Part shown: piece after piece, positions 1,272 through 32,858 of the stretch | How the letters are laid out: each line of letters starts with the position of its first letter | Position numbering within the stretch: the stretch's first letter is position 1 | Assembly: GCF_007655135.1 (NCBI RefSeq) | Contig: NC_045128.1 | Coordinates: 38,577,885-38,641,884, forward strand | Reading direction: 5' to 3' | Length of the DNA stretch: 64,000 bases | Origin: Punica granatum | Lineage: Eukaryota; Streptophyta; Magnoliopsida; Myrtales; Lythraceae | Made by a program: the position numbers and the translations under genes | The notes under the pieces: model-generated | Told to the model about the DNA's origin: nothing | The model's input: only the letters and a program-made list of their open reading frames with translations | Database searches by the model: none

Positions 1272-1274
1272 TTA

Positions 1275-5265: not shown

Positions 5266-5526
5266 ACTCACAAAAATATCGTAAAAAGATATATAATTAT
5301 AACATTTTTTGAACCCAAAAACATATAATTAAAAAGATATATTAACTTGCTTCCTGTCTAAGTGTAATTCATGGAAAACTAATGTTTCTAGATATTATAA
5401 AAACTAATTAAAGCGAAGCCATGCGTAAATATCAGAAAAAGTGAACAGCCAACAAGCACAAAAGAAGATGATACCACAACTACAAAACTTGTTGCAAGTA
5501 AAAGGGGATTCATAGTCGGAGTCGAC

Positions 5527-5589
5527 CTAGCTCCATTGGATTAGTCGGGACAATTGGGCTTCCGAATACAAATATTCATACCGAAAAAA
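5527..5589 (+). mobile_element. 3' fragment of SINE family 2
   Basis: CCATTGGATTAGTCGG, CTTCCGAATA and CATACCGAAAAAAAA match the 3' part of the fuller copy at 30,045-30,222. Only the tail is present. Confidence 0.5.
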
Positions 5590-12260: not shown

Positions 12261-13503
12261 ATTATATGTGTCGTCGATGCAACATTATGTCTATACATCC
12301 ATGGAATATTTATAAGATTACAAGCATTGGATTTTCCATGGAGAAACGATTGAGAGGCTATCAATTCAAACAAGGCAACTTTCAAGAAGTTCACCAATTA
12401 CAAGTCGGTAAGGCCGTTGCCCGCTAGTTGATGGCGTGCGAATTGATCAGAACTTTCAACTATCACCAATCTGATAACTTATTCACAACTTGTTGTCGGC
12501 TCATGGGGTACTTTGGACAACCCATAAAAGAATCGCCAAAATCTTGAATTATTAAAAAAAATTAAAACCCAAGGCGGGAAAGCTTTTGCTTGCCCGCCAG
12601 CTAAAATTCAAAATCAAATTAAGTCTTCTCTTTCCTTTATTTCTCTCACTTTCCATTCTATCCTTTATCTCTCTCACTTCCCTTCTATCATTTCTCTATA
12701 CTCCTTTCTTTTTATCCGATCAGGTTAAAGGAAAAGGAAAGGAAAGGTCAGCTTCATCGGAGCTACAGTCGTCCGTAGGATAGACACGAGGGTGATGTAC
12801 ACACCACCATCGACACTGAGCATGAGGATACTTGGGACTCGTCCTCATCTGAGGCCCCATCCGTCATGGCCAGCATCGACACCAACACGATGGTCGTCGG
12901 GAAGCCTAGGAAATTGACGGTGGGCAATGATATGGTGGAAAAATTAACGATGTGCAATGGCTCATTCAACCGTCTCTTGGGTCTGTCAAACCACTAACCC
13001 ATGGTCCCAGTCTGGGTCTTTTTATGTTAGATTTCCATGAAAGAAAATTGGAAATTGAGCTTTGTTTGAATTGATTAAGTGCATAAAGGAATATAGGCTT
13101 TGTCTTTTAGCAGCTTTCGATGCATTTGGTCGGAGGGTTTAAAGAGTTTTTTATGGGTATTTTTTCGCAGGTTGTTTCGATTCCTGTGAGCAGCAACCCA
13201 TCATCCCTCAAGAAATCAGTGTTTAAGGTCAAGATTTCTTCACTTCGTTGGGACAAATCTCTTGTTTTGATTGTGGGTTGTCTTGAGTCTTGTCCTTTGA
13301 ATGTCTGCTGCTAATAATCTCACTGTATTTACGGAATGCTCATAATTATGCTTCTCCAATTGATAATGTCAATGGCATTTCAATTTCAACATCTATTTAC
13401 ATGATCTATTTTGCGAACACAACCTCTGTTGTATCTTTTTGGCTACAAGCTTCCTCACTTAGTATATGTGTCTTCATCTCTTTGAAGGATCGAGGAGGAG
13501 GAG

Positions 13504-13710
13504 GATGGAGCCGAACAAGAAGGTTTACAATAAAAACTCTATGATGAGGCAGAGGCTCAAGCAAAAATGGGAGAAGAATATAGAGCCGAACAATGAGCTC
13601 TACAAAAAAAACTTTGAAGGAGGCGGAGGCCCTAAAACATCAGGAAGAACAATTTAGAGAAGAACTACGAGCTCAACAAAGACAAATGCAAGAGGAGACT
13701 ATGGCATGAG
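13504..13710 (+). pseudogene. CACTA-encoded coiled-coil protein, C-terminal remnant
   Basis: In shifting frames it encodes MMRQRLKQKWEKN, NNELYKK, then ALKHQEEQFREELRAQQRQM before a stop near 13,708. Glu/Gln/Arg-rich heptads like these close many plant En/Spm-encoded proteins (Ptta/TNP-like). An internal repeat (GAGCCGAACAAGAAGG / GAGCCGAACAATGAGC) is present. It is frame-broken. Confidence 0.45.
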
Positions 13711-14448
13711 AGAAGGCTCTGGAGGGGATGTTGCTCAAGCTTATCTACTAAGTAATAAGGTCGTGTTGTATGAGTATGACAGCTTTTCTGTTGTTGAACT
13801 TATGACATTTGGTCGGAGATTGTAACATTAGGTTTGATGCAATAGACATAATTATGTGATGTAATTCTTGAGTTTACATGCATATTTGTACTAATTATTT
13901 GTGTTTGATTAAAATAAATTTCACAATAGTATCTTGATAACAAGCTCACAATTTATTGACCAAAAAAGAAATATTGCCAGTCATCTATTAATAAGCTTAC
14001 CACTTGTTGACAGAAAACCCACCATCTGAGTATCGGGTTGCTTCGTTAAGGTGATTCTAGACCGACAAAATCATGGGTCATCCCATGTTGATGTTAGGCG
14101 ATGTCTGCTAAATGTTGGCGTAAGTTATTCGAGGCCAACGTTAGCATGGGTAGTCATAGGGTGGTCATGCCCGATGTTGACCAAACGTCATCGTAGTCTG
14201 GTCTAGGACTACCCATACAAATGTCACCCTAGGTGGTCCTCCACCTACTGGGGGTTGTGGTGACTACTATTATGAGTCAACATACCTATGGCGATGCTTG
14301 TCATGAACGTCGCGATGCCCTATCTCGACCGAACCTTAGGTGACTCATAGTTATGGGTCATCACAAACGTCACGAGATTTTTGACAATGCTTGTAAAGGT
14401 CGCCTAAAGTCCTAAAAAATGTCATCGTAGGCCCTTTTTGTTGTAGTG

Positions 14449-15673
14449 AATATTCTGTTGTGATGTTTACATTTCCATTTCCAACGTCTACAAGTAAAAA
14501 AACCAAGAAAATTTTGAGCATGTTCATCTCTTTTTTTCTTTTTTCTTTTTTTTTTCCTTTTCCCTTTTGGACCTAGTTTTGATTGAACCTACAAGTGCCG
14601 AGAGGAGGGGACATTCGGGGGAGGACGTCGAAGGTCCAGTGGACCCAATCAGAAGCTTCAATTCATTAAAAAAATCAAATCAGCAGATTTACCCTCATAG
14701 ATTCTTTTGTCCCTTCCACCCCCAAAAAAAAAAACAAAGAAAAAAGATCTTTTGTCCCTGCTATGGCTAATTATACCCTTTTATCAATATCAACCTCTTA
14801 ACAATCTCTTGACGAGGAATATTCCAAAAAATCGCCAGCAATAATCCAATAATCGAACCAAAAATCCAATTACTATTGCCATTAGACGCAAAAGCACGTT
14901 ATTGCCATTATGTTCATGATTAGTTGATGGCCACCAATAACATAATATTTAAAAATGGAGAGTTCCAATTATTGTGACAAATTTGACATAAGGAATAAAC
15001 TATTTTTAATAGTAGATTCTATAATGGTAGAATTTTCCATTTTCCAATACATTCTTACATAATATTTTTCTGCTTACGAAAATTGAACACACAAGAATAT
15101 AAGATGATACCGTTTCACTATGCAACTTTATTAAAGAGTTATTTGTATGGCAGTCGCGGATGGATTTTTGGCTTATGAAATTTTCATATTTCATCCATTC
15201 GCACGAAAAGAAAACATTGTATGGCAGTCACGGATGGATTTTTTTTTTAATCCCACCCCCAGCAAAAAAGTTATAAATTGTTACTATATTTTATGTCGAA
15301 ATTGTCATTTTCTTCATTAAATTATCTCTTCAATCTCCTTGACTTTATGATATTATTATTTATGTACCTTCCAGCTTCTCTTGAGTGTTGCTCCCGTGGA
15401 CCGAACTCTTAGATCCCTCCCCTAATTAGAGTGGTAAAAGGGGGGGAAGAAAACATGTTTTTGGAAGGAGATACTGTTTCTAAATCATATATTCGAGGCC
15501 CATTGGGCTAAATCAGTTTCACTTGTTATTAATTAATTAATTGGCCAGGTCCAGAAAAACACTCTTCTCATAGGAAAAGCCCAATTACGTTGATTGAAAA
15601 TTGAATCCTCTTGTTCCGACGATAACCCTTTAGATGATTCTATCTCGTCAGTCAGATGTGATAAAACACCAAA
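14449..15673. other. Spacer between the CACTA and hAT elements
   Basis: It contains poly-T and poly-A tracts and a direct repeat, TGTATGGCAGTC(A/G)CGGATGGATTTTT, at 15,145 and 15,219. No gene recognised. Confidence 0.4.
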
Positions 15674-15681
15674 CATGCTAC
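15674..15681. repeat. Left target-site duplication of the hAT element
   Basis: CATGCTAC, identical to 29918-29925. Eight bases is the hAT target-site length. Confidence 0.92.
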
Positions 15682-15685
15682 TAGG

Positions 15686-15855
15686 GGTGATCGGTTCCGG
15701 GTACCCTGTTTTTTCCACGATACCCGGACCCTACCCTGTAAGGGACCGGTTCCAAGATTTTGGAACCGGACCCTACCCTGTTGAATCCTGGAACCGGAAC
15801 CTACCCGGAACCTGTATTATACCACAGGTTCCGGGTACCCTGTTGGAACCTGTAA
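15686..15855. repeat. Left subterminal repeats of the hAT element
   Basis: Clustered motifs GGTTCCGGGTACCCTG, ACCCGGACCCTACCCTG, GGAACCGG and their inverses fill this end. The same words recur at each right end. Such subterminal arrays are transposase-binding sites in Ac-type elements; binding here is inferred. Confidence 0.7.
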
Positions 15856-16157
15856 ATTTTTTTATCTCGTAAATAAAATAGAAAATATCACACCCATAAT
15901 CAGTAATCACGACAAATATAATATCAACATAAATTTAGATTAATCCACAACAATAAAAAATAATGTCTCATCAATCAATCCATAATACGATCTCACATAA
16001 TAAAATGTAATATTCCCTCACAATACGTCCATAATGGACTAATACGGTCCACGAACTAAAAAATTTATCTATCCAAAAGCAGACAAATCACACTCCCAAT
16101 ATCCTCACTTGATCTCCCACTCGAACGTGCCAAAATTTTGTAATTTAATTCCAGCAC

Positions 16158-16254
16158 TCCAGCATGGTGTGCTTTTATGCTTCCACTGGAGTGGCTTCTT
16201 CACTGGCACTGCCATTCTCATCTTCCTCATCGCTGCAAACCAATAGAAAACTGA
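16158..16254 (-). other. Possible alternative 3' exon of the hAT transposase
   Basis: After an acceptor-like TTGGTTTGCAG, one frame reads SDEEDENGSASEEATPVEA and a stop, an acidic tail like those closing many plant hAT proteins. It could be used by alternative splicing, or it may be a 3' UTR exon. Unproven. Confidence 0.3.
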
Positions 16255-16501
16255 ATGAGACTCGTCCATTCTCAATAAAATCGGACGGGGAACAACAAGT
16301 GTATGGAGAACAAATAGAGCATATCTTGTCTCAGCAAATCTATTGAGCCCAACCCAACCAAGCAAACATAAAAGAAGAAAGAACACTGCAGCCACTGTCA
16401 AGAGCATGACGAACCATCTTGGATGAAAAGATGCACAAATCATTTCTTTGATGGCGATTCATGTTTATTTCGCTAATATTACCTTGTAGTTGCTCCACAC
16501 A

Positions 16502-18653
16502 TTAATCCATCATAATCTCCGTCGTGGTGCCGCTGAGTTCTATAAAAAGAAAATCACATGAAAATAAAAAGTTAAAAGAGCAAGTGAAAAATAGATGAAA
16601 AGAATAACCCCGAAATAAAATTAAAATTACCTTCCTCATACTTTTCTGCATCCTCCAAATATTGCTCGATGGTGATCGGAGTTAGAGAAGAGCGCAACCA
16701 ATCTTGTGCGCATATCAAAGCTTCCACAAATTTTGGAGTGAGCGAGCTACGAAACTGATCAAGAACTCGACCAGATGTGCTGAAAGCCGACTCCGAGGCT
16801 ACTGTGGACACCGGAATGGCTAAGATATCTTTTGCCATAGAACTTAATACCTTATAGGTTGATTTCTTATCATTCCACCATCTCAATACATCAAAAGAAT
16901 CACTTTCCGGCTCGGTAGGACTATCAAGGTATTGCTCCAATTCAGACTTAGATCCCATTTCTTGAATATTTTCATCATCTTCACGCCAACCTTTCACTAG
17001 TTTTTTCGGATTCACAATCTTGGCACAACTACTAGACTCAAGAAGTGAAGGAGTGATAGACTCAGCAGTTGAAGTACAATGTTCACTCACTGAAGAAGAA
17101 TGAATATTCTCATAGAATGAAAAAAGACCCGCCAAGACATCCGTTATATGCTGAATCATCTCTTCTGCTCTACCAGAATCATCACAAATTCTCCGACAAC
17201 AATACTTCAAAAACCTCAATTTATACTGAGGATCCAATACCGCAGCTATCAATACCATCATATTTGTTCGATCCACACTTCCATAGTATTTGTCAAATTT
17301 CTCTCTCATTTTTCTAGCCATAGATCGAAGACCAGGATTTGAATCTCTCGCACACTCAGTCAAAGTAGAAAGCATGCTAACAATTTCAAGAAAGTAACTA
17401 TTAGACGTCACATAGAGACTCCCAGACATTCTCTTGGTAGCTTCATAGAAGTTTCCCAAGAACAAACACATCATAGATGCATTATCCCAATCTTCACTAG
17501 TTGGAACTCCACCATCAAGTTCACTAATAAAAGCAACATCATCATCTTCAAGTCTAATAAAGGCCTATCTAAACTTAAGTGCAGTTTCCAACATCAGATA
17601 AGTAGAATTCCACCGAGTTGAGATATCAAGACAAACAGAGCCCTTATAAGTTATTCCCTCCTCAACAATACACCGCTGAAATAATTGAGCTCTAGCTGGA
17701 GAGCTTCTCACATATTTTACTGCAGCTCGAATTCGATTAATAGAATCACGAATCTCAGTCAACCCATCTTTCACAATCAAATTCAATATGTGAGCTGCAC
17801 ACCTCATATGAAAAAACCTTCCATCTAAGACAAGCACATTCTTCCACTTATCCTTCAAATAATTCACAGCAACATCATTGGAGCTAGCATTATCTACTGT
17901 AATAGACGAAATACAATCTCTAATGCCCCACTCATTGATGCATTTCTCAACCATCTTACCAATCTCCTTACCCGTATGGCTTGGCATAACAACAAAGTTA
18001 ATAACTCTCTTGTGCAACTTCCAATCACCATCAATAAAATGAGCAGTGAGACACAAGTAACTCAAATTCTGAATAGAAGTCCAAATATCCGTAGTGAGAG
18101 CAATCCTTGATTTTAGAGATTTTAACTTATCTTTTAGACTCATTCTCTCACAAATATAGAGCTTCATGCAATCTCTTGCAACTGTAAACCTCGAAATATG
18201 TTTAAACAAAGGCTGCAATGCTGTCACAAAACCCCTAAAACCTTGTTTCTCGACAACAGAAAATGGTTGCTCATCAACAATAACCATTCGAGCTAACACG
18301 TGCCTACAGTATTCTTCATCAAATTTCCAAGTAGTCATTGATTTGACACTTACTCCATCTACTCCAGATTGAGAAAATGATGATATCAACTCTTGCTTTT
18401 TGTCAAGATTTTGGGGATATTTTGAGCAAGTTTTCAAATGTTTCCACATTGATGAAGTACCCCAATCAACACAATAAGCAAGAAGTGAATTGCAGTAATT
18501 ACAAATGGAAACATCCTTTCCATTTTTCTCATCTTTGCCTTTATGAAAATGATCCCAAACCTCGGACCTTGACTTCTTAGAGCCCACTTTGGTCGATGAT
18601 ACCCCGCATGTAGACTCATTATCAGCAGTTGTCTTGTTAGTCGAATTTTCCAT
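16502..18653 (-). pseudogene. hAT transposase (BED-type RICESLEEPER-like), one in-frame nonsense codon
   Basis: The main exon (18653-16631) and a 38-nt last exon (16539-16502, after donor GAAG|GTAATT and acceptor TTATAG) give 686 positions plus stop, the usual hAT size. Order: BED zinc finger at about residues 25-80 (CNYC...HLKTC); LTTDIWTS with the first catalytic Asp; ITVDNASSND with the second Asp; and a C-terminal hAT dimerisation domain (WWNDKK, AIPVSTVASESAFS with the likely catalytic Glu, FRSSLTP). The start ATG directly follows the acceptor TTGCAG, so the apparent upstream extension is intron. The only visible lesion is TAG at 17567-17565, where the homologous residue is expected to be Lys; the frame continues unbroken on both sides. 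Transposases of this kind cut and paste DNA in the nucleus using the element's ends. Confidence 0.9.
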
Positions 18654-20335
18654 CTGCAATAAATTGAATTGAATGGTTAAAAAAATTTTAAAAAAGAAAA
18701 AAAAAGTAATAATTATGCTGTTTGGATTAGTACGATGACCGGAAAATGAATCCTCAAACTTTGTTAGCGACAATGACTTCTCTAATTATCCAATTTCCCA
18801 TCACATTAAACCAATGAATGAAGATGAATGTCATAAACCCGTCTCCCGCCGTACCACCGGACGGTCCCTTGGCCCTTTGTCCTTCAGATCAGCGTCCTGG
18901 GAAGTGCTGATCTAAATCATCTAATAATGCCCCAAAGAATACCCTCAAGATTATCTGAATCTGTTGGCTGAACGGTACAATTTCCCTTTGTTATATAAAA
19001 GGCTATCTCATCCCATTTAATCTAAGCTTTTCATCGCCTAACTTCAACGTTTTACATGATTCTATTGAAATACATAGCAATTGTTTTATCATGTTCGATT
19101 TGATCGCCCTACATTTTTCTTTTGGTATAGGGAAGACTCATAGATCTGATAAAGATAAATGAAAAGCAAAAAAGTATAAGAAATTCCAAGAATAAGATCG
19201 AAAAAGCTTGTATCACAGTACCATAACTTTTCCCCGTCATTTTTACTGATGAATGCTTTTGAGTATGGACCCAAGTACTTCCCTAAACAGCTCTTGGAAT
19301 TTCACACAAATTAATAAACCAAAAATACCATTGATGCAAAATGTAATCTCATTACAATCCATTAGAAGTCCAGGTACTTATACAGAAACAAAAACGCAAG
19401 AGAAGTAGCAAAAAACAGCATAACACTCGACGGTCCCAACCAGGGCAAGTTTCGAACACGAAACACCGAATTATTCAATCCCCAAATCCCCTACACGTGG
19501 ACGCGACAATACTACGGCAAGAACACCAGAAGCTCAGAAACCATGAATCTTGATCTGGTCCTTTCTATATGTTGTTATATGTTGCATCTTGCCAGTTACA
19601 ATCGTCGGAAACTTGATTATACATAATTTCGCATTCTCTATTTTCTTCCAAATTCAGCAGATCAGCGGACACATAAGGAAGATGTTAGACATTTGAACAT
19701 CCTTTTGATCATCATAATTAAGGAACCAAGAACATCTGAGTATTTGACCTAAGTCGAAAGGCCGAGAAACATATAAAGAGCGACAAAACAATTGCCCAAT
19801 TCGCGGTTGAATACAAATATCGATTTTTCAACCCAAAAAGGAACAGAAAAATTCCAGTCGACTGATATATGTCTCTGGTCAGATCTCAGCAGAGGAGTCT
19901 AGAGAGATTCGGAGACGAGATGACGCAAAATCATACCGGTAAAGAGAGATTCAAGGAGAGTCGAAGCCAGAGAGTCGGAGATAAAAGGCGAGCGACGGAG
20001 AGGAACTGTAGGGAGAGGGAGTACAGAGTCGATTTAGGGTTGAAGAGGCTGAGACGAAAGCTGAGCTTTACCTTCTTCTTCCTTCATGTCTTCCCGATCT
20101 GACTGATATTGAGGGTAACTTTACCCTTTTTTTTTTTTTTAAGTAATTACCATCCGGTTCCGGTTCCGGTTTTGGATACCCCATAGACTGGAACCGGAAC
20201 CGGAACCGGATTTCACCGGTTCCTTATTTTGATACCCGGACCCTACCCTATTTTCAATACGAGCTACCCGGACCCTACCCTACCGGGTAGGTTCTGACCG
20301 GTTCCGGGTATACCCGGTATCCGTGCACACCCCTA
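17925..20335 (-). repeat. hAT tandem unit 1, 2411 bp (attached to the full gene)
   Basis: It runs from the GCCCC inside the transposase gene to a right terminus CACCCCTA, which abuts unit 2. It has the longer terminal variant (with TTTTCAATACGAGCT) and the CAA codon where units 2 and 4 have TAA. In this unit the gene continues leftward into the catalytic half. Confidence 0.92.
18654..20335 (-). promoter_or_regulatory. hAT transposase leader and promoter region (unit 1)
   Basis: On the minus strand a TTTTATATAAC box lies near 18,991, and a possible 5' UTR intron runs from GAGG|GTATTC (about 18,944) to TTGCAG before the ATG. Farther out are CT-rich leader-like sequence with AACCCTAAAT and then the terminal repeats. 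The same block recurs in all five units, so each truncated frame has its own potential promoter. A 77-residue plus-strand frame at 19,869-20,102 is antisense to this leader and is probably chance. Confidence 0.5.
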
Positions 20336-21064
20336 GCCCCACTCATTGATGCATTTCTCAACCATCTTACCAATCTCCTTACCCTTATGGCTAGGCATAA
20401 CAACAAAGTTAATAACTCTCTTGTGCAACTTCCAATCACCATCAATAAAATGAGCAGTGAGACACAAGTAACTCAAATTCTGAATAGAAATCCAAATATC
20501 CGTAGTGAGAGCAATCCTTGATTTTAGAGATTTTAACTTATCTTTTAGACTCATTCTCTCACAAATATAGAGCTTCATGCAATCTCTTGCAACTGTAAAC
20601 CTCGAAATATGTTTAAACAAAGGCTGCAATGCTGACACAAAACCCCTAAAACCTTATTTCTCGACAACAGAAAATGGTTGCTCATCAACAATAACCATTC
20701 GAGCTAACACGTGCCTACAGTATTCTTCATCAAATTTCCAAGTAGTCATTGATTTGACACTTACTCCATCTACTCCAGATTGAGAAAATGATGATATCAA
20801 CTCTTGCTTTTTGTCAAGATTTTGGGGATATTTTGAGCAAGTTTTCAAATGTTTCCACATTGATGAAGTACCCCAATCAACATAATAAGCAAGAAGTGAA
20901 TTGCAGTAATTACAAATTGAAACATCCTTTCCATTTTTCTCATCTTTGCCTTTATGAAAATGACCCCAAACCTCGGACCTTGACTTCTTAGAGCCCACTT
21001 TGGTCGATGATACCCCGCATGTAGACTCATTATCAGCAGTTGTCTTGTTAGTCGAATTTTCCAT
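20333..21064 (-). pseudogene. Truncated hAT frame in unit 2, with internal stop
   Basis: It starts at the same MENSTNKT position and carries the BED finger, but a Gln codon has become TAA at 20656-20654, ending the product at 136 residues. The frame otherwise runs on to TAG at the junction with unit 1's terminus. Confidence 0.8.
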
Positions 21065-22708
21065 CTGCAATAAATTGAATTGAATGGTTAAAAAAATTTT
21101 AAAAAAGAAAAAAAAAGTAATAATTATGCTGTTTGGATTAGTACGATGACCGGAAAATGAATCCTCAAACTTTGTTAGCGACAATGACTTCTCTAATTAT
21201 CCAATTTCCCATCACATTAAACCAATGAATGAAGATGAATGTCATAAACCCGTCTCCCGCCGTACCACCGGACGGTCCCTTGGCCCTTTGTCCTTCAGAT
21301 CAGCGTCCTGGGAAGTGCTGATCTAAATCATCTAATAATGCCCCAAAGAACCCTCAAGATTATCTGAATCTGTTGGCTGAACGGTACAATTTCCCTCTGT
21401 TATATAAAAGGCTATCTCATCCCATTTAATCTAAGCTTTTCATCGCCTAACTTCAACGTTTTACATGATTCTATTGAAATACATAGCAATTGTTTTATCA
21501 TGTTCGATTTGATCGCCCTACATTTTTCTTTTGGTATAGGGAAGACTCATAGATCTGATAAAGATAAATGAAAAGCAAAAAAGTATAAGAAATTCCAAGA
21601 ATAAGATCGAAAAAGCTTGTATCACAGTACCATAACTTTTCCCCGTCATTTTTACTGATGAATGCTTTTGAGTATGGACCCAAGTACTTCCCTAAACAGC
21701 TCTTGGAATTTCACACAAATTAATAAACCAAAAATACCATTGATGCAAAATGTAATCTCATTACAATCCATTAGAAGTCCAGGTACTTATACAGAAACAA
21801 AAACGCAAGAGAAGCAGCAAAAAACAGCATAACACTCGACGGTCCCAACCAGGGCAAGTTTCGAACACGAAACACCGAATTATTCAATGCCCAAATCCCC
21901 TACACGTGGACGCGACAATACTACGGCAAGAACACTAGAAGCTCAGAAACCATGAATCTTGATCTGGTCCTTTCTATATGTTGTTATATGTTGCATCTTG
22001 CCAGTTACAATCGTCGGAAACTTGATTATACATAATTTCGCATTCTCTATTTTCTTCCAAATTCAGCAGATCAGCGGACACATAAGGAAGATGTTAGACA
22101 TTTGAACATCCTTTTGATCATCATAATTAAGGAACCAAGAACATCTGAGTATCTGACCTAAGTCGAAAGGCCGAGAAACATATAAAGAGCGACAAAACAA
22201 TTGCCCAATTCGCGGTTGAATACAAATATCGATTTTTCAACCCAAAAAGGAACATAAAAATTCCAGTCGACTGATATATGTCTCTGGTCAGATCTCAGCA
22301 GAGGAGTCTAGAGAGATTCGGAGACGAGATGACGCAAAATCTTACCGGTAAAGAGAGATTCAAGGAGAGTCGAAGCCGGAGAGTCGGAGATAAAAGGCGA
22401 GCGACGGAGAGGAACTGTAGGGAGAGGTAGTACAGAGTCGATTTAGGGTTGAAGAGGCTGAGACGAAAGCTGAGCTTTACCTTCTTCTTCCTTCATGTCT
22501 TCCCGATCTGACTGATATTGAGGGTAACTTTACCCTTTTTTTTTTAAGTAATTACCATCCGGTTCCGGTTCCGGTTTTGGATACCCCATAGACTGGAACC
22601 GGAACCGGAACCGGATTTCACCGGTTCCTTATTTTGATACCCGGACCCTACCCTACCGGGTAGGTTCTGACCGGTTCCGGGTATACCCGGTATCCGTGCA
22701 CACCCCTA
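20336..22708 (-). repeat. hAT tandem unit 2, 2373 bp (B type)
   Basis: A direct copy joined at CCCCTA|GCCCC. B-type markers shared with unit 4 are TAA in the transposase frame, the short terminus lacking about 34 bp, ATGCCCAAAT, and AGAGGTAGTACAG. Confidence 0.92.
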
Positions 22709-23437
22709 GCCCCACTCATTGATGCATTTCTCAACCATCTTACCAATCTCCTTACCCTTATGGCTAGGCATAACAACAAAGTTAATAACTCTCTTGTGCA
22801 ACTTCCAATCACCATCAATAAAATGAGCAGTGAGACACAAGTAACTCAAATTCTGAATAGAAATCCAAATATCCGTAGTGAGAGCAATCCTTGATTTTAG
22901 AGATTTTAACTTATCTTTTAGACTCATTCTCTCACAAATATAGAGCTTCATGCAATCTCTTGCAACTGTAAACCTCGAAATATGTTTAAACAAAGGCTGC
23001 AATGCTGTCACAAAACCCCTAAAACCTTGTTTCTCGACAACAGAAAATGGTTGCTCATCAACAATAACCATTCGAGCTAACACGTGCCTACAGTATTCTT
23101 CATCAAATTTCCAAGTAGTCATTGATTTGACACTTACTCCATCTACTCCAGATTGAGAAAATGATGATATCAACTCTTGCTTTTTGTCAAGATTTTGGGG
23201 ATATTTTGAGCAAGTTTTCAAATGTTTCCACATTGATGAAGTACCCCAATCAACACAATAAGCAAGAAGTGAATTGCAGTAATTACAAATGGAAACATCC
23301 TTTCCATTTTTCTCATCTTTGCCTTTATGAAAATGATCCCAAACCTCGGACCTTGACTTCTTAGAGCCCACTTTGGTCGATGATACCCCGCATGTAGACT
23401 CATTATCAGCAGTTGTCTTGTTAGTCGAATTTTCCAT
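22706..23437 (-). CDS. Truncated transposase: BED finger protein of 243 aa (unit 3)
   Basis: An open frame from MENSTNKT (directly after TTGCAG) to INEWG. It then stops at TAG, which is the first three bases of the neighbouring unit's transposon terminus (22708-22706). It keeps the BED zinc finger (CNYC...HLKTC) and the TTDIW stretch but lacks the second catalytic Asp, the third acidic residue and the dimerisation domain. It should bind DNA but not transpose. Its own promoter block lies upstream. Whether it is expressed is unknown. By analogy with truncated P-element proteins it could repress the element. Confidence 0.65.
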   Translation of the reverse strand: MENSTNKTTADNESTCGVSSTKVGSKKSRSEVWDHFHKGKDEKNGKDVSICNYCNSLLAYCVDWGTSSMWKHLKTCSKYPQNLDKKQELISSFSQSGVDGVSVKSMTTWKFDEEYCRHVLARMVIVDEQPFSVVEKQGFRGFVTALQPLFKHISRFTVARDCMKLYICERMSLKDKLKSLKSRIALTTDIWISIQNLSYLCLTAHFIDGDWKLHKRVINFVVMPSHKGKEIGKMVEKCINEWG

Positions 23438-25122
23438 CTGCAATAAATTGAATTGAATGGTTAAAAAAATTTTAAAAAAGAAAAAAAAAGTAATAATTAT
23501 GCTGTTTGGATTAGTACGATGACCGGAAAATGAATCCTCAAACTTTGTTAGCGACAATGACTTCTCTAATTATCCAATTTCCCATCACATTAAACCAATG
23601 AATGAAGATGAATGTCATAAACCCGTCTCCCGCCGTACCACCGGACGGTCCCTTGGCCCTTTGTCCTTCAGATCAGCGTCCTGGGAAGTGCTGATCTAAA
23701 TCATCTAATAATGCCCCAAAGAACACCCTCAAGATTATCTGAATCTGATGGCTGAACGGTACAATTTCCCTCTGTTATATAAAAGGCTATCTCATCCCAT
23801 TTAATCTAAGCTTTTCATCGCCTAACTTCAACGTTTTACATGATTCTATTGAAATACATAGCAATTGTTTTATCATGTTCGATTTGATCGCCCTACATTT
23901 TTCTTTTGGTATAGGGAAGACTCATAGATCTGATAAAGATAAATGAAAAGCAAAAAAGTATAAGAAATTCCAAGAATAAGATCGAAAAAGCTTGTATCAC
24001 AGTACCATAACTTTTCCCCGTCATTTTTACTGATGAATGCTTTTGAGTATGGACCCAAGTACTTCCCTAAACAGCTCTTGGAATTTCACACAAATTAATA
24101 AACCAAAAATACCATTGATGCAAAATGTAATCTCATTACAATCCATTAGAAGTCCAGGTACTTATACAGAAACAAAAACGCAAGAGAAGTAGCAAAAAAC
24201 AGCATAACACTCGACGGTCCCAACCAGGGCAAGTTTCGAACACGAAACACCGAATTATTCAATCCCCAAATCCCCTACACGTGGACGCGACAATACTACG
24301 GCAAGAACACCAGAAGCTCAGAAACCATGAATCTTGATCTGGTCCTTTCTATATGTTGTTATATGTTGCATCTTGCCAGTTACAATCGTCGGAAACTTGA
24401 TTATACATAATTTCGCATTCTCTATTTTCTTCCAAATTCAGCAGATCAGCGGACACATAAGGAAGATGTTAGACATTTGAACATCCTTTTGATCATCATA
24501 ATTAAGGAACCAAGAACATCTGAGTATTTGACCTAAGTCGAAAGGCCGAGAAACATATAAAGAGCGACAAAACAATTGCCCAATTCGCGGTTGAATACAA
24601 ATATCGATTTTTCAACCCAAAAAGGAACAGAAAAATTCCAGTCGACTGATATATGTCTCTGGTCAGATCTCAGCAGAGGAGTCTAGAGAGATTCGGAGAC
24701 GAGATGACGCAAAATCATACCGGTAAAGAGAGATTCAAGGAGAGTCGAAGCCAGAGAGTCGGAGATAAAAGGCGAGCGACGGAGAGGAACTGTAGGGAGA
24801 GGGAGTACAGAGTCGATTTAGGGTTGAAGAGGCTGAGACGAAAGCTGAGCTTTACCTTCTTCTTCCTTCATGTCTTCCCGATCTGACTGATATTGAGGGT
24901 AACTTTACCCTCTTTTTTTTTTTTTTTAAGTAATTACCATCCGGTTCCGGTTCCGGTTTTGGATACCCCATAGACTGGAACCGGAACCGGAACCGGATTT
25001 CACCGGTTCCTTATTTTGATACCCGGACCCTACCCTATTTTCAATACGAGCTACCCGGACCCTACCCTACCGGGTAGGTTCTGACCGGTTCCGGGTATAC
25101 CCGGTATCCGTGCACACCCCTA
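22709..25122 (-). repeat. hAT tandem unit 3, 2414 bp (A type)
   Basis: It matches unit 1 at the diagnostic sites: CAA codon, long terminus, ATCCCCAAAT, AGAAGTAGC, AATCATACCGG. It differs by CTGATGGCTG, shared with unit 5. Confidence 0.92.
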
Positions 25123-25851
25123 GCCCCACTCATTGATGCATTTCTCAACCATCTTACCAATCTCCTTACCCTTATGGCTAGGCATAACAACAAAGTTAAT
25201 AACTCTCTTGTGCAACTTCCAATCACCATCAATAAAATGAGCAGTGAGACACAAGTAACTCAAATTCTGAATAGAAATCCAAATATCCGTAGTGAGAGCA
25301 ATCCTTGATTTTAGAGATTTTAACTTATCTTTTAGACTCATTCTCTCACAAATATAGAGCTTCATGCAATCTCTTGCAACTGTAAACCTCGAAATATGTT
25401 TAAACAAAGGCTGCAATGCTGACACAAAACCCCTAAAACCTTATTTCTCGACAACAGAAAATGGTTGCTCATCAACAATAACCATTCGAGCTAACACGTG
25501 CCTACAGTATTCTTCATCAAATTTCCAAGTAGTCATTGATTTGACACTTACTCCATCTACTCCAGATTGAGAAAATGATGATATCAACTCTTGCTTTTTG
25601 TCAAGATTTTGGGGATATTTTGAGCAAGTTTTCAAATGTTTCCACATTGATGAAGTACCCCAATCAACATAATAAGCAAGAAGTGAATTGCAGTAATTAC
25701 AAATTGAAACATCCTTTCCATTTTTCTCATCTTTGCCTTTATGAAAATGACCCCAAACCTCGGACCTTGACTTCTTAGAGCCCACTTTGGTCGATGATAC
25801 CCCGCATGTAGACTCATTATCAGCAGTTGTCTTGTTAGTCGAATTTTCCAT
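25120..25851 (-). pseudogene. Truncated hAT frame in unit 4, with internal stop
   Basis: The counterpart of the unit 2 frame, with the same TAA (25443-25441), giving 136 residues. The two carry the stop by common descent. Confidence 0.8.
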
Positions 25852-27497
25852 CTGCAATAAATTGAATTGAATGGTTAAAAAAATTTTAAAAAAGAAAAAA
25901 AAAGTAATAATTATGCTGTTTGGATTAGTACGATGACCGGAAAATGAATCCTCAAACTTTGTTAGCGACAATGACTTCTCTAATTATCCAATTTCCCATC
26001 ACATTAAACCAATGAATGAAGATGAATGTCATAAACCCGTCTCCCGCCGTACCACCGGACGGTCCCTTGGCCCTTTGTCCTTCAGATCAGCGTCCTGGGA
26101 AGTGCTGATCTAAATCATCTAATAATGCCCCAAAGAACCCTCAAGATTATCTGAATCTGTTGGCTGAACGGTACAATTTCCCTCTGTTATATAAAAGGCT
26201 ATCTCATCCCATTTAATCTAAGCTTTTCATCGCCTAACTTCAACGTTTTACATGATTCTATTGAAATACATAGCAATTGTTTTATCATGTTCGATTTGAT
26301 CGCCCTACATTTTTCTTTTGGTATAGGGAAGACTCATAGATCTGATAAAGATAAATGAGAAGCAAAAAAGTATAAGAAATTCCAAGAATAAGATCGAAAA
26401 AGCTTGTATCACAGTACCATAACTTTTCCCCGTCATTTTTACTGATGAATGCTTTTGAGTATGGACCCAAGTACTTCCCTAAACAGCTCTTGGAATTTCA
26501 CACAAATTAATAAACCAAAAATACCATTGATGCAAAATGTAATCTCATTACAATCCATTAGAAGTCCAGGTACTTATACAGAAACAAAAACGCAAGAGAA
26601 GCAGCAAAAAACAGCATAACACTCGACGGTCCCAACCAGGGCAAGTTTCGAACACGAAACACCGAATTATTCAATGCCCAAATCCCCTACACGTGGACGC
26701 GACAATACTACGGCAAGAACACCAGAAGCTCAGAAACCATGAATCTTGATCTGGTCCTTTCTATATGTTGTTATATGTTGCATCTTGCCAGTTACAATCG
26801 TCGGAAACTTGATTATACATAATTTCGCATTCTCTATTTTCTTCCAAATTCAGCAGATCAGCGGACACATAAGGAAGATGTTAGACATTTGAACATCCTT
26901 TTGATCATCATAATTAAGGAACCAAGAACATCTGAGTATCTGACCTAAGTCGAAAGGCCGAGAAACATATAAAGAGCGACAAAACAATTGCCCAATTCGC
27001 GGTTGAATACAAATATCGATTTTTCAACCCAAAAAGGAACATAAAAATTCCAGTCGACTGATATATGTCTCTGGTCAGATCTCAGCAGAGGAGTCTAGAG
27101 AGATTCGGAGACGAGATGACGCAAAATCTTACCGGTAAAGAGAGATTCAAGGAGAGTCGAAGCCGAAGAGTCGGAGATAAAAGGCGAGCGACGGAGAGGA
27201 ACTGTAGGGAGAGGTAGTACAGAGTCGATTTAGGGTTGAAGAGGCTGAGACGAAAGCTGAGCTTTACCTTCTTCTTCCTTCATGTCTTCCCGATCTGACT
27301 GATATTGATGGTAACTTTACCCTTTTTTTTTTTTAAGTAATTACCATCCGGTTCCGGTTCCGGTTTTGGATACCCCATAGACTGGAACCGGAACCGGAAC
27401 CGGATTTCACCGGTTCCTTATTTTGATACCCGGACCCTACCCTACCGGGTAGGTTCTGACCGGTTCCGGGTATACCCGGTATCCGTGCACACCCCTA
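25123..27497 (-). repeat. hAT tandem unit 4, 2375 bp (B type)
   Basis: It is nearly identical to unit 2, including TAA, the short terminus and AGAGGTAGTACAG. Units 2+3 and 4+5 (or 1+2 and 3+4) are offset by about 4,787 bp, so the array expanded as dimers. Confidence 0.92.
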
Positions 27498-28226
27498 GCC
27501 CCACTCATTGATGCATTTCTCAACCATCTTACCAATCTCCTTACCCTTATGGCTAGGCATAACAACAAAGTTAATAACTCTCTTGTGCAACTTCCAATCA
27601 CCATCAATAAAATGAGCAGTGAGACACAAGTAACTCAAATTCTGAATAGAAATCCAAATATCCGTAGTGAGAGCAATCCTTGATTTTAGAGATTTTAACT
27701 TATCTTTTAGACTCATTCTCTCACAAATATAGAGCTTCATGCAATCTCTTGCAACTGTAAACCTCGAAATATGTTTAAACAAAGGCTGCAATGCTGTCAC
27801 AAAACCCCTAAAACCTTGTTTCTCGACAACAGAAAATGGTTGCTCATCAACAATAACCATTCGAGCTAACACGTGCCTACAGTATTCTTCATCAAATTTC
27901 CAAGTAGTCATTGATTTGACACTTACTCCATCTACTCCAGATTGAGAAAATGATGATATCAACTCTTGCTTTTTGTCAAGATTTTGGGGATATTTTGAGC
28001 AAGTTTTCAAATGTTTCCACATTGATGAAGTACCCCAATCAACACAATAAGCAAGAAGTGAATTGCAGTAATTACAAATGGAAACATCCTTTCCATTTTT
28101 CTCATCTTTGCCTTTATGAAAATGATCCCAAACCTCGGACCTTGACTTCTTAGAGCCCACTTTGGTCGATGATACCCCGCATGTAGACTCATTATCAGCA
28201 GTTGTCTTGTTAGTCGAATTTTCCAT
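27495..28226 (-). CDS. Truncated transposase: BED finger protein of 243 aa (unit 5)
   Basis: The same open frame as in unit 3, from MENSTNKT to INEWG, then TAG made by the terminus of unit 4 (27497-27495). The BED finger is intact. It lies next to the outermost promoter block, closest to flanking host DNA, so it is the copy most likely to be read first from the right end. Expression unknown. Confidence 0.65.
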   Translation of the reverse strand: MENSTNKTTADNESTCGVSSTKVGSKKSRSEVWDHFHKGKDEKNGKDVSICNYCNSLLAYCVDWGTSSMWKHLKTCSKYPQNLDKKQELISSFSQSGVDGVSVKSMTTWKFDEEYCRHVLARMVIVDEQPFSVVEKQGFRGFVTALQPLFKHISRFTVARDCMKLYICERMSLKDKLKSLKSRIALTTDIWISIQNLSYLCLTAHFIDGDWKLHKRVINFVVMPSHKGKEIGKMVEKCINEWG

Positions 28227-29917
28227 CTGCAATAAATTGAATTGAATGGTTAAAAAAATTTTAAAAAAGAAAAAAAAGTAATAATTATGCTGTTTGGATT
28301 AGTACGATGACCGGAAAATGAATCCTCAAACTTTGTTAGCGACAATGACTTCTCTAATTATCCAATTTCCCATCACATTAAACCAATGAATGAAGATGAA
28401 TGTCATAAACCCGTCTCCCGCCGTACCACCGGACGGTCCCTTGGCCCTTTGTCCTTCAGATCAGCGTCCTGGGAAGTGCTGATCTAAATCATCTAATAAT
28501 GCCCCAAAGAACACCCTCAAGATTATCTGAATCTGATGGCTGAACGGTACAATTTCCCTCTGTTATATAAAAGGCTATCTCATCCCATTTAATCTAAGCT
28601 TTTCATCGCCTAACTTCAACGTTTTACATGATTCTATTGAAATACATAGCAATTGTTTTATCATGTTCGATTTGATCGCCCTACATTTTTCTTTTGGTCT
28701 AGGGAAGACTCATAGATCTGATAAAGATAAATGAAAAGCAAAAAAGTATAAGAAATTCCAAGAATAAGATCGAAAAAGCTTGTATCACAGTACCATAACT
28801 TTTCCCCGTCATTTTTACTGATGAATGCTTTTGAGTATGGACCCAAGTACTTCCCTAAACAGCTCTTGGAATTTCACACAAATTAATAAACCAAAAATAC
28901 CATTGATGCAAAATGTAATCTCATTACAATCCATTAGAAGTCCAGGTACTTATACAGAAACAAAAACGCAAGAGAAGCAGCAAAAAACAGCATAACACTC
29001 GACGGTCCCAACCAGGGCAAGTTTCGAACACGAAACACCGAATTATTCAATGCCCAAATCCCCTACACGTGGACGCGACAATACTACTGCAAGAACACCA
29101 GAAGCTCAGAAACCATGAATCTTGATCTGGTCCTTTCTATATGTTGTTATATGTTGCATCTTGCTGGTTACAATCGTCGGAAACTTGATTATACATAATT
29201 TCGCATTCTCTATTTTCTTCCAAATTCAGCAGATCAGCGGACACATAAGGAAGATGTTAGACATTTGAACATCCTTTTGATCATCATAATTAAGGAACCA
29301 AGAACATCTGAGTATCTGACCTAAGTCGAAAGGCCGAGAAACATATAAAGAGCGACAAAACAATTGCCCAATTCGCGGTTGAATACAAATATCGATTTTT
29401 CAACCCAAAAAGGAACATAAAAATTCCAGTCGACTGATATATGTCTCTGGTCAGATCTCAGCAGAGGAGTCTAGAGAGATTCGGAGACGAGATGACGCAA
29501 AATCTTACCGGTAAAGAGAGATTCAAGGAGAGTCGAAGCCGGAGAGTCGGAGATGAAAGGCGAGCGACGGAGAGGAACTGTAGGGAGAGGGAGTACAGAG
29601 TCGATTTAGGGTTGAAGAGGCTGAGACGAAAGCTGAGCTTTACCTTCTTCTTCCTTCATGTCTTCCCGATCTGACTGATATTGAGGGTAACTTTACCCTT
29701 TTTTTTTTTAAGTAATTACCATCCGGTTCCGGATTCCGGTTCCGGTTCCGGTTTTGGATACCCCATAGACTGGAACCGGAACCGGAACCGGATTTCACCG
29801 GTTCCTTATTTTGATACCCGGACCCTACCCTATTTTCAATACGAGCTATCCGGACCCTACCCTACCGGGTAGGTTCTGACCGGTTCCGGGTATACCCGGT
29901 ATCCGTGCACACCCCTA
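27498..29917 (-). repeat. hAT tandem unit 5, 2420 bp, outermost, with the true right end
   Basis: A mosaic. Its coding half matches A-type units (CAA; CTGATGGCTG as in unit 3). Much of the outer half matches B-type units (ATGCCCAAAT, AGAAGCAGC, AATCTTACCGG), but it keeps the long terminus and an extra CCGGATT near 29,730. Its terminus borders host DNA and the target duplication. Confidence 0.9.
29700..29917. repeat. Right subterminal repeats and terminus of the hAT element
   Basis: Dense GGTTCCGG / CCGGAACC words, two ACCCGGACCCTACCC-like words, and CCGGGTATACCCGG before CACCCCTA. Four internal copies end at 20335, 22708, 25122 and 27497. Confidence 0.8.
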
Positions 29918-29925
29918 CATGCTAC
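29918..29925. repeat. Right target-site duplication of the hAT element
   Basis: CATGCTAC, a perfect match to 15674-15681. Confidence 0.92.
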
Positions 29926-30044
29926 CAGTAAACGTGCGAATGGGCTACTGAGAAATCAGGACTCTCTAAGTTCTCTTCACGACATCATAACAGAGAGAGG
30001 TCATTTTTAATTTATGCTAGGGTCAAGATCATTTGTTAGTAGAT

Positions 30045-30222
30045 GTGGGTTGGTTCAAGCGGTTAGGCGCTTCTTCTCCTTAAACAAGTCTCGCACTCGA
30101 TTTTTGCGAATGAATAAAATCCACGCTGAGAGAATTCTATTCCTTAGTGAACCGACCCGGCTAGACTGGATTAGCGGATCCCATTGAACTTCCAGATATT
30201 AAGGTTCGCACAAAAAAAAAAC
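30045..30222 (+). mobile_element. tRNA-related SINE, family 2, fullest copy
   Basis: It begins GGTTGGTTCAAGCGGTTAGG (box-A-like), passes AAGTCTCGCACTCGATTT at the box B position, continues with GGCTAGACTGGATTAGCGG and ends in an A run. Other copies: 5,527 (tail), 31,966, 50,668, 50,889 and 55,698. Confidence 0.65.
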
Positions 30223-31965
30223 AAGAAACTCATGTCTCTCAATGAATAGGCTGAGAAAACAATTTAGGAGATTGTATAGGTGCTGACAACAAAAATATAT
30301 CTTTCATGCTTTATAATTTTTATTTGCAAATAATGAAGAAATTCTTCGACGATCCTCCTCGGATTGCAACAAGTAATAGAATGGGTGTTACGCACTCAAG
30401 TAATGACCTTTATCGTTTTTAATTGTAATATCTTAGATTCTTATTAGTTTTTTCTCGTCCATTCTTGCGTGATATATCAGGATAAGTTTTCCTCCGGATA
30501 ATGCTATTTTATTATAAGAAATAAACAAGAAGATTAGGGAAGGATAGAGACGAAAATCTAACAAAGCAAAGACAGCCTAAAAGAGAGGTGACTGCACGTG
30601 TAGGTGCGGACATGTGCAGGAATCCCTCCAGCAGGTTACCTGAAATTTAGACGTACTATGTCGATCTGTAATAAGAAATTCATTGTCTTGTCTTTATATG
30701 GGATTAATTGCATTTTCGAGAAATTTAGGAACAGATAAAAAATAATAATTTTACAAAGCTCCAAGAAATTATAATTCGTCTCAGCTTATCAATGTGATTG
30801 ACATCACTGTCAAAATGGGCTCTAGGAAGCAGTTGTCCAGCCATCATAGGAAAGTTCGAAGAAAGCCACGCCCATTTTTATTGCCGATGCAAACTCTTAT
30901 CCGAACGCAATGTGCATCTCTTTATCTTTTCACAATCGGATAATACGTATACTATAGGGTTATCGTAATAAGCATATATATGAACATCAGACCGATGAAA
31001 CATAAACATCGATATTAAAACTATGTATCCTAGCTAATACATTTTAAACATCGATAGGTGGACAATCCAACTATCTTAAAGTATCGTAGTAAGCCAAAAT
31101 TATTATAAATGTAAACATATTAGTTGATTAGTCATTTGATATGACCCAAGAAAAAAAAGGAAATTAATCTTTTTTTTGGAGAAAAGAATATAGGGGTTTT
31201 GACGTGGCGGGGAGTAAGACCCCCTCGAACTTCGATATTTGATAGGCCATAATTATCCTCACAGATCGGAGATTTCAAAAAGGCACTAACAATGAGCGAA
31301 AGGCAGCTTAATTGAACTCCATTCACATTTTAATGGACTTCTCTATAAATTTTTTCCGATTACATGCGAGATTGATAGGCGACTTAAATTTGGAACGTCA
31401 AGGCAACTATTTCAGGCGATTTACCCCCAACGCTACTAGAGACCTCGGAGGCGGAAATCGATTGCTTTATATGTTCACCTTCCACAGCACAGCAGAGCAG
31501 CAGTGTTTCAATTCAAGTTGCTTTCCTCGTCTCTGCCAGACATGGCCGTAAGCCGAGAATTGATTGGAGATACGATGAGGCGGCGGGCACACTATTAAGC
31601 AATCGGCGGCATGGAGATTGGACAGAGAGGGGTCGTTAAGAGGTGGGGACCACCGGGCTGCACTGATCTGGGGTCCACTCAACAGGTAGTGCTCGTCGTA
31701 GCTGTCCAATGGTTGTCGCACACCGCCCCTTCCATCCCTTATTCGGCTGACCCCAATTTTAAATTTAATAATAAATAAATAGAAACGGGAAAGAGCAAGC
31801 TACCGACTAGCTGGCCAAAGATAAGATAGATCATCCGTACTTGGGTTTTTACTTGGATTAATGAGGTGAAGACAAAAAGTTAAAGATATAAATTATTTTT
31901 TTTTATTTATATTAATTTAAACGGTTCAATATTTTTTTTTTTAATAAGATACTGAATTTCGATAT
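30223..31965. other. Intergenic DNA
   Basis: AT-rich, then a GC-richer patch at 31,440-31,740 with short open frames on both strands but no family resemblance. I support no gene here. Confidence 0.4.
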
Positions 31966-32080
31966 TGTAAATGGAGAAAATTCACGCTGAAAAAATTTTA
32001 TCCATTAATATACCGATCATGCTCGACTGGATTCGTCGAACATTGAACTTCCTAATACTTGAATTTATACCAAAAAATTA
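31966..32080 (+). mobile_element. SINE family 2, 3' partial copy
   Basis: AATGGAGAAAATTCACGCTG, CTCGACTGGATTCGTCG and CATTGAACTTCC parallel the 30,045 copy from its middle to its tail. Confidence 0.55.
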
Positions 32081-32827
32081 TTTCTTTTTATTTATTTATA
32101 TTCAAAGGAAAAGTACGATACAAATTACCCCATAAAGTTTAATTTAATGTACTTTAACCACATCAAACTATTAAACATGTATGGGGGTTCCTACTCAGTA
32201 TCGAAAGTAATATCTAAATAATTTCAGCGTTGAAGGGTGGCTCCTGAAATGAAATGTACATCGACAAGAGCTCACTTCGATACGTTATTTGTTGATGCAT
32301 GTAAAACAATATCAATTTGGAAATGAATCTTTCGAATGTCAAAAGATTCATATCATGAGATCATCCTATTGACATTCAAGATGGCAGCAGAAACGAAGAG
32401 CCGAACATCTCGGTGCTTCTGACGTCGCCCTTGTAGATGCTACAAAGTCTAAAGTTGTGTTAGGTGATAGTTCAAGATAAACAAAACTGAGGGGACTCTA
32501 AGGTGCAAACATTGTCCTTTTTTAATTTTTTTTTAAAAATTAAATCTTAATCTGAAAAAAGAAGAATACAGGGGGAGATGCTCTTTGCTGGATCCTGGTG
32601 TACGTGTGTGTTTGTGTTTGTGTGCGTGTGCGTGTGCGGGGTGTTGTGCGACAGCTCAGCCTTTTCAGCTGCACGGTTTCCCCTGCATGCATTCTCCTGT
32701 CCGCATTCAGGTAAATTACCATTCCCTGCGCCATCCCTACGGTACGCCCACTTCTAGATTTGATTTAACTCGTCATCGAAGTCATTAATGATTTTCCATT
32801 ACCGTTTACCACTCATATATAGAAATA
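32081..32827. other. Intergenic DNA with TG-rich microsatellite
   Basis: A (TG)-rich tract spans about 32,598-32,640. No gene recognised. Confidence 0.5.
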
Positions 32828-32858
32828 CTAGAATTTTTAATCCTGCGTTGCACGGGTA
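32828..32858 (-). mobile_element. Probable Helitron 3' terminus
   Basis: On the minus strand CCCGTGCAACGCAGG, an imperfect hairpin, is followed by ten bases (ATTAAAAATT) and then CTAG next to T. A hairpin 10-12 bases before a CTRR end inserted between A and T is the Helitron signature. The 5' TC end would lie to the right, within 33,000-33,900; I could not fix it. No Rep/helicase is present. Confidence 0.55.

What the first reader, a model, noticed from the sequence alone, without database searches (positions are those of the whole stretch)
15682..29917. hAT element with one left end and five right ends
Five direct units of about 2.4 kb each finish with the same right terminus (CACCCCTA at 20335, 22708, 25122, 27497 and 29917), while only one left end exists. 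Each inner terminus is joined to the identical internal site of the transposase gene (GCCCCACTCATTG) with no extra bases. A precise terminus-to-internal joint repeated four times suggests that the transposon end itself attacked its own gene (aberrant or self-directed transposition), followed by unequal exchange. Tandem hAT ends of this form are not something I know to be described.
Basis: partly seen in the sequence, partly recalled or inferred. Interest (0 to 1): 0.88.

Follow-up and report, generated by a model that had tools for sequence, protein, structure and literature searches.

The report
Plant transposon with five right ends
A plant "jumping gene" of the hAT type appears to have joined one of its own ends into the middle of itself once, and later mispaired recombination multiplied that piece, leaving an array with one left end and five right ends; it is a new twist on known transposon misfires, not a new kind of system.

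Summary
A 14,236-bp hAT element (15682-29917) lies between exact 8-bp target-site duplications (CATGCTAC). It has one left end and five right ends; four inner right ends abut the same transposase-gene position, 17925, with no extra bases and no microhomology. Unit variants give part of the history. The four joints look like one event: units 2-5 share a substitution that is derived against 120 homologues. Unit 3 matches unit 5 over its first half (0 substitutions in 1,201 positions) and unit 1 over the rest (0 in 1,209); units 2 and 4 differ at 4 of 2,373. One unequal crossover in a three-unit array A-B-C, C against A, gives the observed order A, B, C/A, B, C. The exact terminus fits a transposase-made joint, with GCCCCACT as its target. 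Self-targeted sister-chromatid transposition, same-direction nested insertion with loss of the inner left end, and autointegration plus recombination all give this joint; the sequence cannot separate them. The transposase frame has a nonsense codon; units 3 and 5 encode a 243-aa BED-finger fragment stopped by the terminal repeat's TAG. No genome search was answered and no reads were available, so a mis-join of haplotypes is not excluded.

The parts
15674..15681 (.). left target-site duplication CATGCTAC
   Evidence: identical to 29918-29925
15682..15689 (+). left terminal inverted repeat TAGGGGTG, the only left end found
   Evidence: single match on - of CACCCCTA; L end found once
15682..20335 (.). 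one structurally complete element, 4654 bp (left end to first right end)
16572..18653 (-). hAT transposase reading frame (ATG at 18653) interrupted by a TAG at 17565-17567; BED finger, hAT RNase-H-like region and hAT dimerisation region; the true 3' end (splicing) was not determined
   Evidence: Pfam on the two open pieces; translation
17925..17932 (.). internal site GCCCCACT to which the right end is joined; putative 8-bp target of the self-directed event
   Evidence: follows each of the 4 inner right ends; that it is a target-site copy is inferred
17925..20335 (.). unit U1 (type A)
20336..22708 (.). unit U2 (type B; lacks 32 bp near the right end; nonsense codon in the BED-finger ORF)
22709..25122 (.). 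unit U3 (mosaic: U5-like up to column 1064, U1-like from column 1203)
25123..27497 (.). unit U4 (type B; 4 substitutions from U2)
27498..29917 (.). unit U5 (type C), carrying the outermost right end
20328..20343 (.). joint 1, CACCCCTA|GCCCCACT
22701..22716 (.). joint 2
25115..25130 (.). joint 3
27490..27505 (.). joint 4
22706..23437 (-). 243-codon ORF of U3 (BED finger), stopped by the TAG of the terminal repeat
27495..28226 (-). 243-codon ORF of U5, same stop
29910..29917 (+). outermost right terminal inverted repeat CACCCCTA
29918..29925 (.). right target-site duplication CATGCTAC

Best explanation
A single 4.65-kb hAT element inserted here with an 8-bp TSD. Later, in one self-directed transposition event, a right end cut exactly by transposase was joined to an internal site of the same element or a sister copy (GCCCCACT, the presumed 8-bp target). 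This left the order left end - left half - right half - right end | right half - right end between the original TSDs. The simplest one-step route is sister-chromatid transposition: the right end of one sister and the left end of the other are used, and the target lies inside the element that contributes the left end, so the inner left segment is lost as a circle. Mispaired homologous recombination then made three units (A, B, C) and, later, one C-against-A crossover made five. SHOWN by sequence: the TSD, the exact joint, the shared variants of units 2-5, and the U3 mosaic. INFERRED: transposase as maker of the joint, the route, the single founding event, and the dimer-to-trimer step. The confidence given is for the general statement (one self-directed, transposase-made joint, then real unequal exchange); the sister-chromatid route itself I put at about 0.36.
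For: Exact 8-bp TSD around the whole array. Right terminus kept to its last base at all 4 inner joints, with 0 bp microhomology on either side. At residue 193 of P0001, units 2-5 encode I where 112 of 120 homologues have T, 7 S and 1 a gap, so units 2-5 share a derived state. At the 18 gap-free sites where U1 and U5 differ, U3 follows U5 at the first 6 and U1 at the last 12 (arrangement chance about 1e-4 given those counts); 0/1201, 0/1209 and 4/2373 substitutions fit one recent exchange. A sketch with labels gives the observed order from sister-chromatid transposition in one step. Precedent: sister-chromatid transposition of Ac/Ds ends is named as an established reaction (PMC3744419, passages), and hAT-associated tandem duplications begin exactly at the transposon terminus (same paper, passages).
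Against: Only one side of the presumed target is preserved, so the 8-bp stagger cannot be verified. Nested insertion and autointegration leave the same joint. The products of sister-chromatid transposition that the paper lists are bridges, breaks, inverted duplications and deletions, not a direct duplication inside the element. No other copy of the element, no progenitor and no reads could be examined. At residue 228 unit 1, not units 2-5, has the less common state (T in 6 of 120 homologues, K in 75), so each lineage has changed; they could also have come from two diverged elements, which favours nested insertion. The variants are not evenly spread: 5 of the 6 B-private sites lie in columns 300-629, and U5 matches U2 and U1 in alternating blocks, so gene conversion or further exchanges beyond the two that I name are possible. 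The 4 substitutions since the last exchange all fall in U2/U4 and none in the two other compared stretches; small indels in A and T runs (for example column 773, and 2203-2205) were left out of these counts.
Confidence: 0.66

Rival explanations
1. Nested insertion: a second copy, perhaps a slightly diverged one, inserted in the same direction into the first at GCCCCACT by ordinary transposition. Homologous recombination between the two left halves then removed the inner left end. (Odds of the routes to the joint are meant to sum to about 1: sister-chromatid 0.36, nested 0.33, autointegration 0.13, single-ended 0.08, end joining 0.05, other 0.05. The assembly rival is a separate question.)
For: Uses only ordinary reactions and yields the observed order. 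Units U1 and U2 differ at 17 of 2373 sites, and each lineage has a residue uncommon among homologues, as two diverged copies would. A Ds-l4 element nested inside a Ds-l3 element is reported, nesting being called rarer for Ds types (PMC3260210, passages).
Against: Needs two events instead of one. No trace of an inner left end next to GCCCCACT. The A/BC split (10 sites) is little deeper than the B/C split (6 and 7 private sites), so two long-separated copies are not required.
Confidence: 0.33
2. Autointegration: the excised element's ends attacked its own interior, giving two deletion circles. The 2.4-kb circle carrying R|GCCCCACT then recombined into a resident copy, perhaps after rolling-circle growth.
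For: [quoted passage not shown] The geometry gives the observed joint.
Against: Needs an extrachromosomal intermediate plus homologous integration. The U3 mosaic does not need a circle. One search for hAT autointegration listed 8 papers, of which I opened one (Sleeping Beauty/piggyBac); none was seen to report it for a hAT.
Confidence: 0.13
3. Single-ended attack: one right end alone was cut and joined to its own gene.
For: Single-ended products, inside or outside the transposon, are described for piggyBac (PMC3952818, passages).
Against: The same paper says that true single-ended events cannot be convincingly demonstrated, since other mechanisms give similar products. Two-ended routes explain all that is seen.
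Confidence: 0.08
4. Five units are an assembly product: the true allele(s) hold three units A-B-C, and two haplotypes were joined inside C/A.
For: The C/A switch in U3 and the near-identity of U2 and U4 are also what a mis-join of two haplotypes would leave; no reads were available.
Against: U2 and U4 differ at 4 sites and in poly-T length, so this is no simple looping of one copy. Even if true, the three-unit array and the precise joint would remain.
Confidence: 0.18
5. Non-homologous joining of two random breaks, no transposase.
For: Zero microhomology is compatible with end joining.
Against: A random break would have to fall exactly after the last base of the terminus.
Confidence: 0.05

Closest known systems
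hAT-associated tandem direct duplications explained by reversed-ends transposition in maize (PMC3744419, passages read)
   Same: 8-bp TSDs; the duplication joint falls exactly at a transposon terminus; in two of the three natural B73 cases the second element has a matching TSD on one side only
   Different: there the duplicated DNA is flank beside the element and there are exactly two copies; here the element's own right half is duplicated and five copies are present
Compound element Ds-l4-483 of maize (PMC3260210, passages read)
   Same: one complete element followed by a truncated copy that ends in a perfect TIR and a further copy of the TSD
   Different: there about 5.5 kb of other DNA (988 to 6537) lies between; here the terminus abuts the internal site directly and the truncated part is present four times
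Double Ds of maize (mentioned in PMC3260210, passages; its structure is recalled)
   Same: self-insertion of a hAT element into its own kind
   Different: as recalled it is in inverted orientation and keeps ends of both copies; here direct orientation and only one left end
Autointegration and single-ended products of Sleeping Beauty and piggyBac (PMC3952818, passages read)
   Same: a transposon end joined to a target inside the same transposon
   Different: other superfamilies, plasmid assays, not a chromosomal array
TE-derived tandem repeats and hAT-MITE tandem accumulations (PMC9659126 and PMC12368964, passages read; McGurk and Barbash 2018 seen only as a reference entry, its content recalled)
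   Same: transposon pieces multiplied in tandem, with unequal exchange among the proposed mechanisms
   Different: satellites, tandem dimers or units of 167-169 bp; here a 2.4-kb half element with the gene's 5' part and a terminus

Membership tests
hAT superfamily DNA transposon | transposase with hAT C-terminal dimerisation region (PF05699) | tested here: met
   3.1e-30, 104.2 bits against cut-off 21.4
hAT superfamily DNA transposon | hAT-like RNase-H fold region (PF14372) | tested here: met
   9.3e-24, 84 bits against cut-off 27
hAT superfamily DNA transposon | 8-bp target-site duplication | tested here: met
   CATGCTAC on both sides
hAT superfamily DNA transposon | short terminal inverted repeats | tested here: met
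   TAGGGGTG at both ends, 8 bp perfect
hAT superfamily DNA transposon | catalytic D, D, E residues | not tested
   no structure or motif test was run
autonomous hAT element | uninterrupted transposase frame | tested here: not met
   TAG in frame at 17565-17567
reversed-ends-transposition tandem duplication (Ac/Ds model) | joint lies exactly at a transposon terminus | tested here: met
   4 of 4 joints
reversed-ends-transposition tandem duplication (Ac/Ds model) | outer TSD kept; inner terminus followed by a non-matching sequence | tested here: met
   R|TSD once (outermost), R|GCCCCACT four times
reversed-ends-transposition tandem duplication (Ac/Ds model) | exactly two copies of DNA flanking the element | tested here: not met
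   five copies, of element DNA
reversed-ends-transposition tandem duplication (Ac/Ds model) | reciprocal deletion on the sister product | not testable with these tools
   needs a fresh event
double Ds type self-insertion (definition recalled) | second copy with both ends, inverted | tested here: not met
   one left end; 0 inverted repeat pairs of 100 bp or more in 13000-33000
tandem array grown by unequal crossing-over | recombinant unit with one clean switch between parental types | tested here: met
   U3, 6 then 12 of 18 gap-free informative sites

The most novel reading that the evidence does not exclude
One sister-chromatid transposition aimed at the element's own interior created, in a single step, a hAT with a duplicated right half. 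That structure is a seed for unequal exchange, and it multiplies a BED-finger-only transposase fragment, together with the gene's 5' region, whose stop codon is the terminal repeat itself. This would be a ready-made route to a family of truncated, possibly repressive transposase genes with many spare right ends.
Probability: 0.2. Interest if true: 0.62.

Novelty: new variant of a known kind. Interest (0 to 1): 0.45.

Why it matters
It is a natural record of what looks like a self-directed hAT transposition product followed by a resolvable unequal exchange. It links two usually separate ideas, alternative transposition of hAT ends and birth of tandem repeats from transposons, at one locus with base-exact joints. 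One left end with five right ends also gives five nested candidate elements (4654, 7027, 9441, 11816 and 14236 bp), a natural substrate for asking which end pair a hAT transposase prefers.

Tried and rejected
Four independent joints: disfavoured, because units 2-5 share the same early differences and one is derived by homologue comparison. Simple block duplication (AB)(AB)C at unit borders: rejected, because U3 begins like U5 and not like U1. Microhomology-mediated joining: 0 bp on either side. A chance TSD: about 1.5e-5 for the given positions, equal bases assumed. Second left end or inverted copy in the window: none found. Host identification: of the 120 listed relatives of the AGL62-like MADS ORF (700 passed the cut-off), the 100% one is the window's own protein and no other exceeds 66% identity; named ones reach at most 60%. 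I therefore say only that the window looks like a flowering plant, probably a eudicot (inference). BED-only truncated relatives: 20 proteins at E <= 1e-30, at most 72% identical and that over 46% of the query, none marked as the window's own; this did not show the array elsewhere. Ages (about 0.5 My for A against B/C and 0.06 My for the last exchange) rest on a recalled rate of 7e-9 per site per year and are only orders of magnitude. A dated order of the first two duplications was considered and dropped, because the variants are clustered.

Literature: 8 paper searches were answered. In their listings I saw no report of a hAT array with one left and several right ends joined to an internal site; the library is open-licence papers only, and most listed papers were not opened, so this is weak evidence of absence. 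Opened papers were seen as passages found by term, none in full.
Full report
OBSERVATION. CACCCCTA ends at 20335, 22708, 25122, 27497 and 29917 on +, and its reverse complement begins the element at 15682. The five direct units are 2411, 2373, 2414, 2375 and 2420 bp long. Each inner right terminus is followed without extra bases by GCCCCACTCATTG, which lies at 17925 inside the transposase gene; the 16-mer across the joint occurs four times. The array therefore looks like one insertion, and its outermost ends are those of the original insertion or of a later jump of the whole.

IDENTITY. The two open pieces of the minus-strand gene hold a BED zinc finger (6e-05), a hAT RNase-H-like region (9.3e-24) and the hAT dimerisation region (PF05699, 3.1e-30). 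With short TAGGGGTG inverted termini and the 8-bp TSD this is a hAT element; many listed relatives are named RICESLEEPER-like. The best of the 120 listed relatives (1539 passed the cut-off) is from Canna indica, 75% identity over 71% of the query; the other 119 are at most 55%. The transposase frame carries one TAG at 17565-17567, so this copy does not encode a full-length transposase without read-through.

HISTORY OF THE UNITS. I aligned the five units. U1/U3 and U2/U4 are close pairs (6 of 2411 and 4 of 2373 substitutions). U3 is a mosaic: against U5 it has 0 substitutions in 1201 compared positions of columns 1-1202 and 12 in 1206 afterwards; against U1 it has 6 in 1202 and then 0 in 1209. 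Positions with a gap in either sequence are left out of these counts; there are small indels in A and T runs, such as a base missing from U5 at column 773 and three extra bases in U3 at 2203-2205. At the 18 gap-free sites where U1 and U5 differ, U3 follows U5 six times and then U1 twelve times; such an order has a chance of about 1e-4 given those counts. A three-unit array A (U1), B (U2), C (U5) that undergoes one unequal crossover between C on one chromatid and A on the other gives A, B, C/A, B, C, which is what is seen. The earlier steps are less clear. Among gap-free sites 10 set A apart from B and C, 6 are private to B, 7 private to C, and 4 separate U2 from U4. But 5 of the 6 B-private sites fall in columns 300-629, and U5 agrees with U2 and U1 in alternating blocks, so gene conversion or more exchanges may have taken part.

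ONE JOINT, NOT FOUR. In the first 155 columns U2-U5 agree with each other and differ from U1 at three sites. Two of these change the protein. At residue 193 (numbering of P0001, one more than from the ATG) U2-U5 have I, whereas 112 of 120 homologues have T, 7 have S and 1 a gap. At residue 228 U1 has T, whereas K is found in 75 of 120 and T in 6. U2-U5 thus share a derived state, which is evidence for one founding joint, although later homogenisation could also spread it; U1 has its own uncommon state. The second result is compatible with two diverged parent elements.

HOW THE JOINT AROSE. The right terminus is complete to its last base, and there is no microhomology on either side. This points to an end cut by transposase. 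A label-only sketch shows three routes to the same product. (1) Sister-chromatid transposition: the right end of one sister and the left end of the other are used, with the target inside the element that gave the left end; one step, and the lost piece is a circle of the left half. (2) Ordinary nested insertion in the same direction, then homologous loss of the inner left end. (3) Autointegration into deletion circles, then homologous integration of the right-half circle. All three make GCCCCACT an 8-bp target of which only one side survives. I hold self-directed transposition in general at 0.66 and cannot separate routes 1 and 2. Alternative transposition of hAT ends is described in maize, with 8-bp TSDs and joints exactly at the terminus (PMC3744419, passages; re-replication variants in PMC4270019, passages; macrotransposons in PMC9910405, passages). 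The sister-chromatid products listed there are bridges, breaks, inverted duplications and deletions, so a self-targeted direct duplication is my extension. Circular hAT forms (PMC2803484, passages) and end-into-self products of other superfamilies (PMC3952818, passages) are also described.

WHAT IT MAY DO. Each unit holds the gene's 5' part and the right terminus. In U3 and U5 the frame from the ATG is open for 243 codons and stops at TAG, the first three bases of the terminal repeat read on the minus strand; in U2 and U4 it is broken by another nonsense codon. The BED finger is found in the fragment of U3 (1.1e-4, 22.6 bits against cut-off 20.6) and in the first open piece of U2 (5.1e-5); no dimerisation region is found in either. 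A repressor role, as known for truncated P-element products (recalled), is speculation; expression was not examined. One left end with five right ends allows nested elements of 4654 to 14236 bp. Nested Ds elements are said to acquire chromosome-breaking properties and probably to be selected against (PMC3260210, passages), which may bear on the rarity of such loci.

NOVELTY. The parts are known: hAT superfamily, alternative transposition, nested elements, unequal exchange. The combination (one left end, five right ends, one base-exact end-to-interior joint in an expanded array) was not seen in the listings of the eight answered paper searches, which cover open-licence papers only. The nearest printed case seen is the compound Ds-l4-483. 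I therefore call it a new variant of a known kind.

LIMITS. A mis-join of two three-unit haplotypes would leave the same C/A mosaic and is kept as a rival (0.18). It would reduce the copy number but would not remove the joint.

Noticed in passing
window 22706-23437 and 27495-28226 (-): BED-finger ORFs whose stop codon TAG is supplied by the transposon terminus itself; possible truncated regulatory proteins.
   Followed up: partly
window 20233-20264 (present in U1, absent from U2 and U4); U5 near 29722-29753: U2 and U4 lack 32 bp near the right end, which lie between two copies of TACCCGGACCCTACCCT (read); U5 has a 13-bp insertion in the CCGGTT repeats.
   Followed up: partly
window 46599-46631: A run of 33 C; it may mark an assembly or sequencing problem.
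   Followed up: no
window 6713-7441 (+): AGL62-like type I MADS-box ORF; the identical protein is counted on 3 contigs, the longest 44.6 Mb.
   Followed up: no
   Followed up: no
protein P0002: The closest listed transposase comes from the monocot Canna indica (75% identity over 71%), against at most 55% for the other 119 listed; shorter fragments reach 72% over 46%. Patchy distribution or horizontal transfer is possible; not tested.
   Followed up: no
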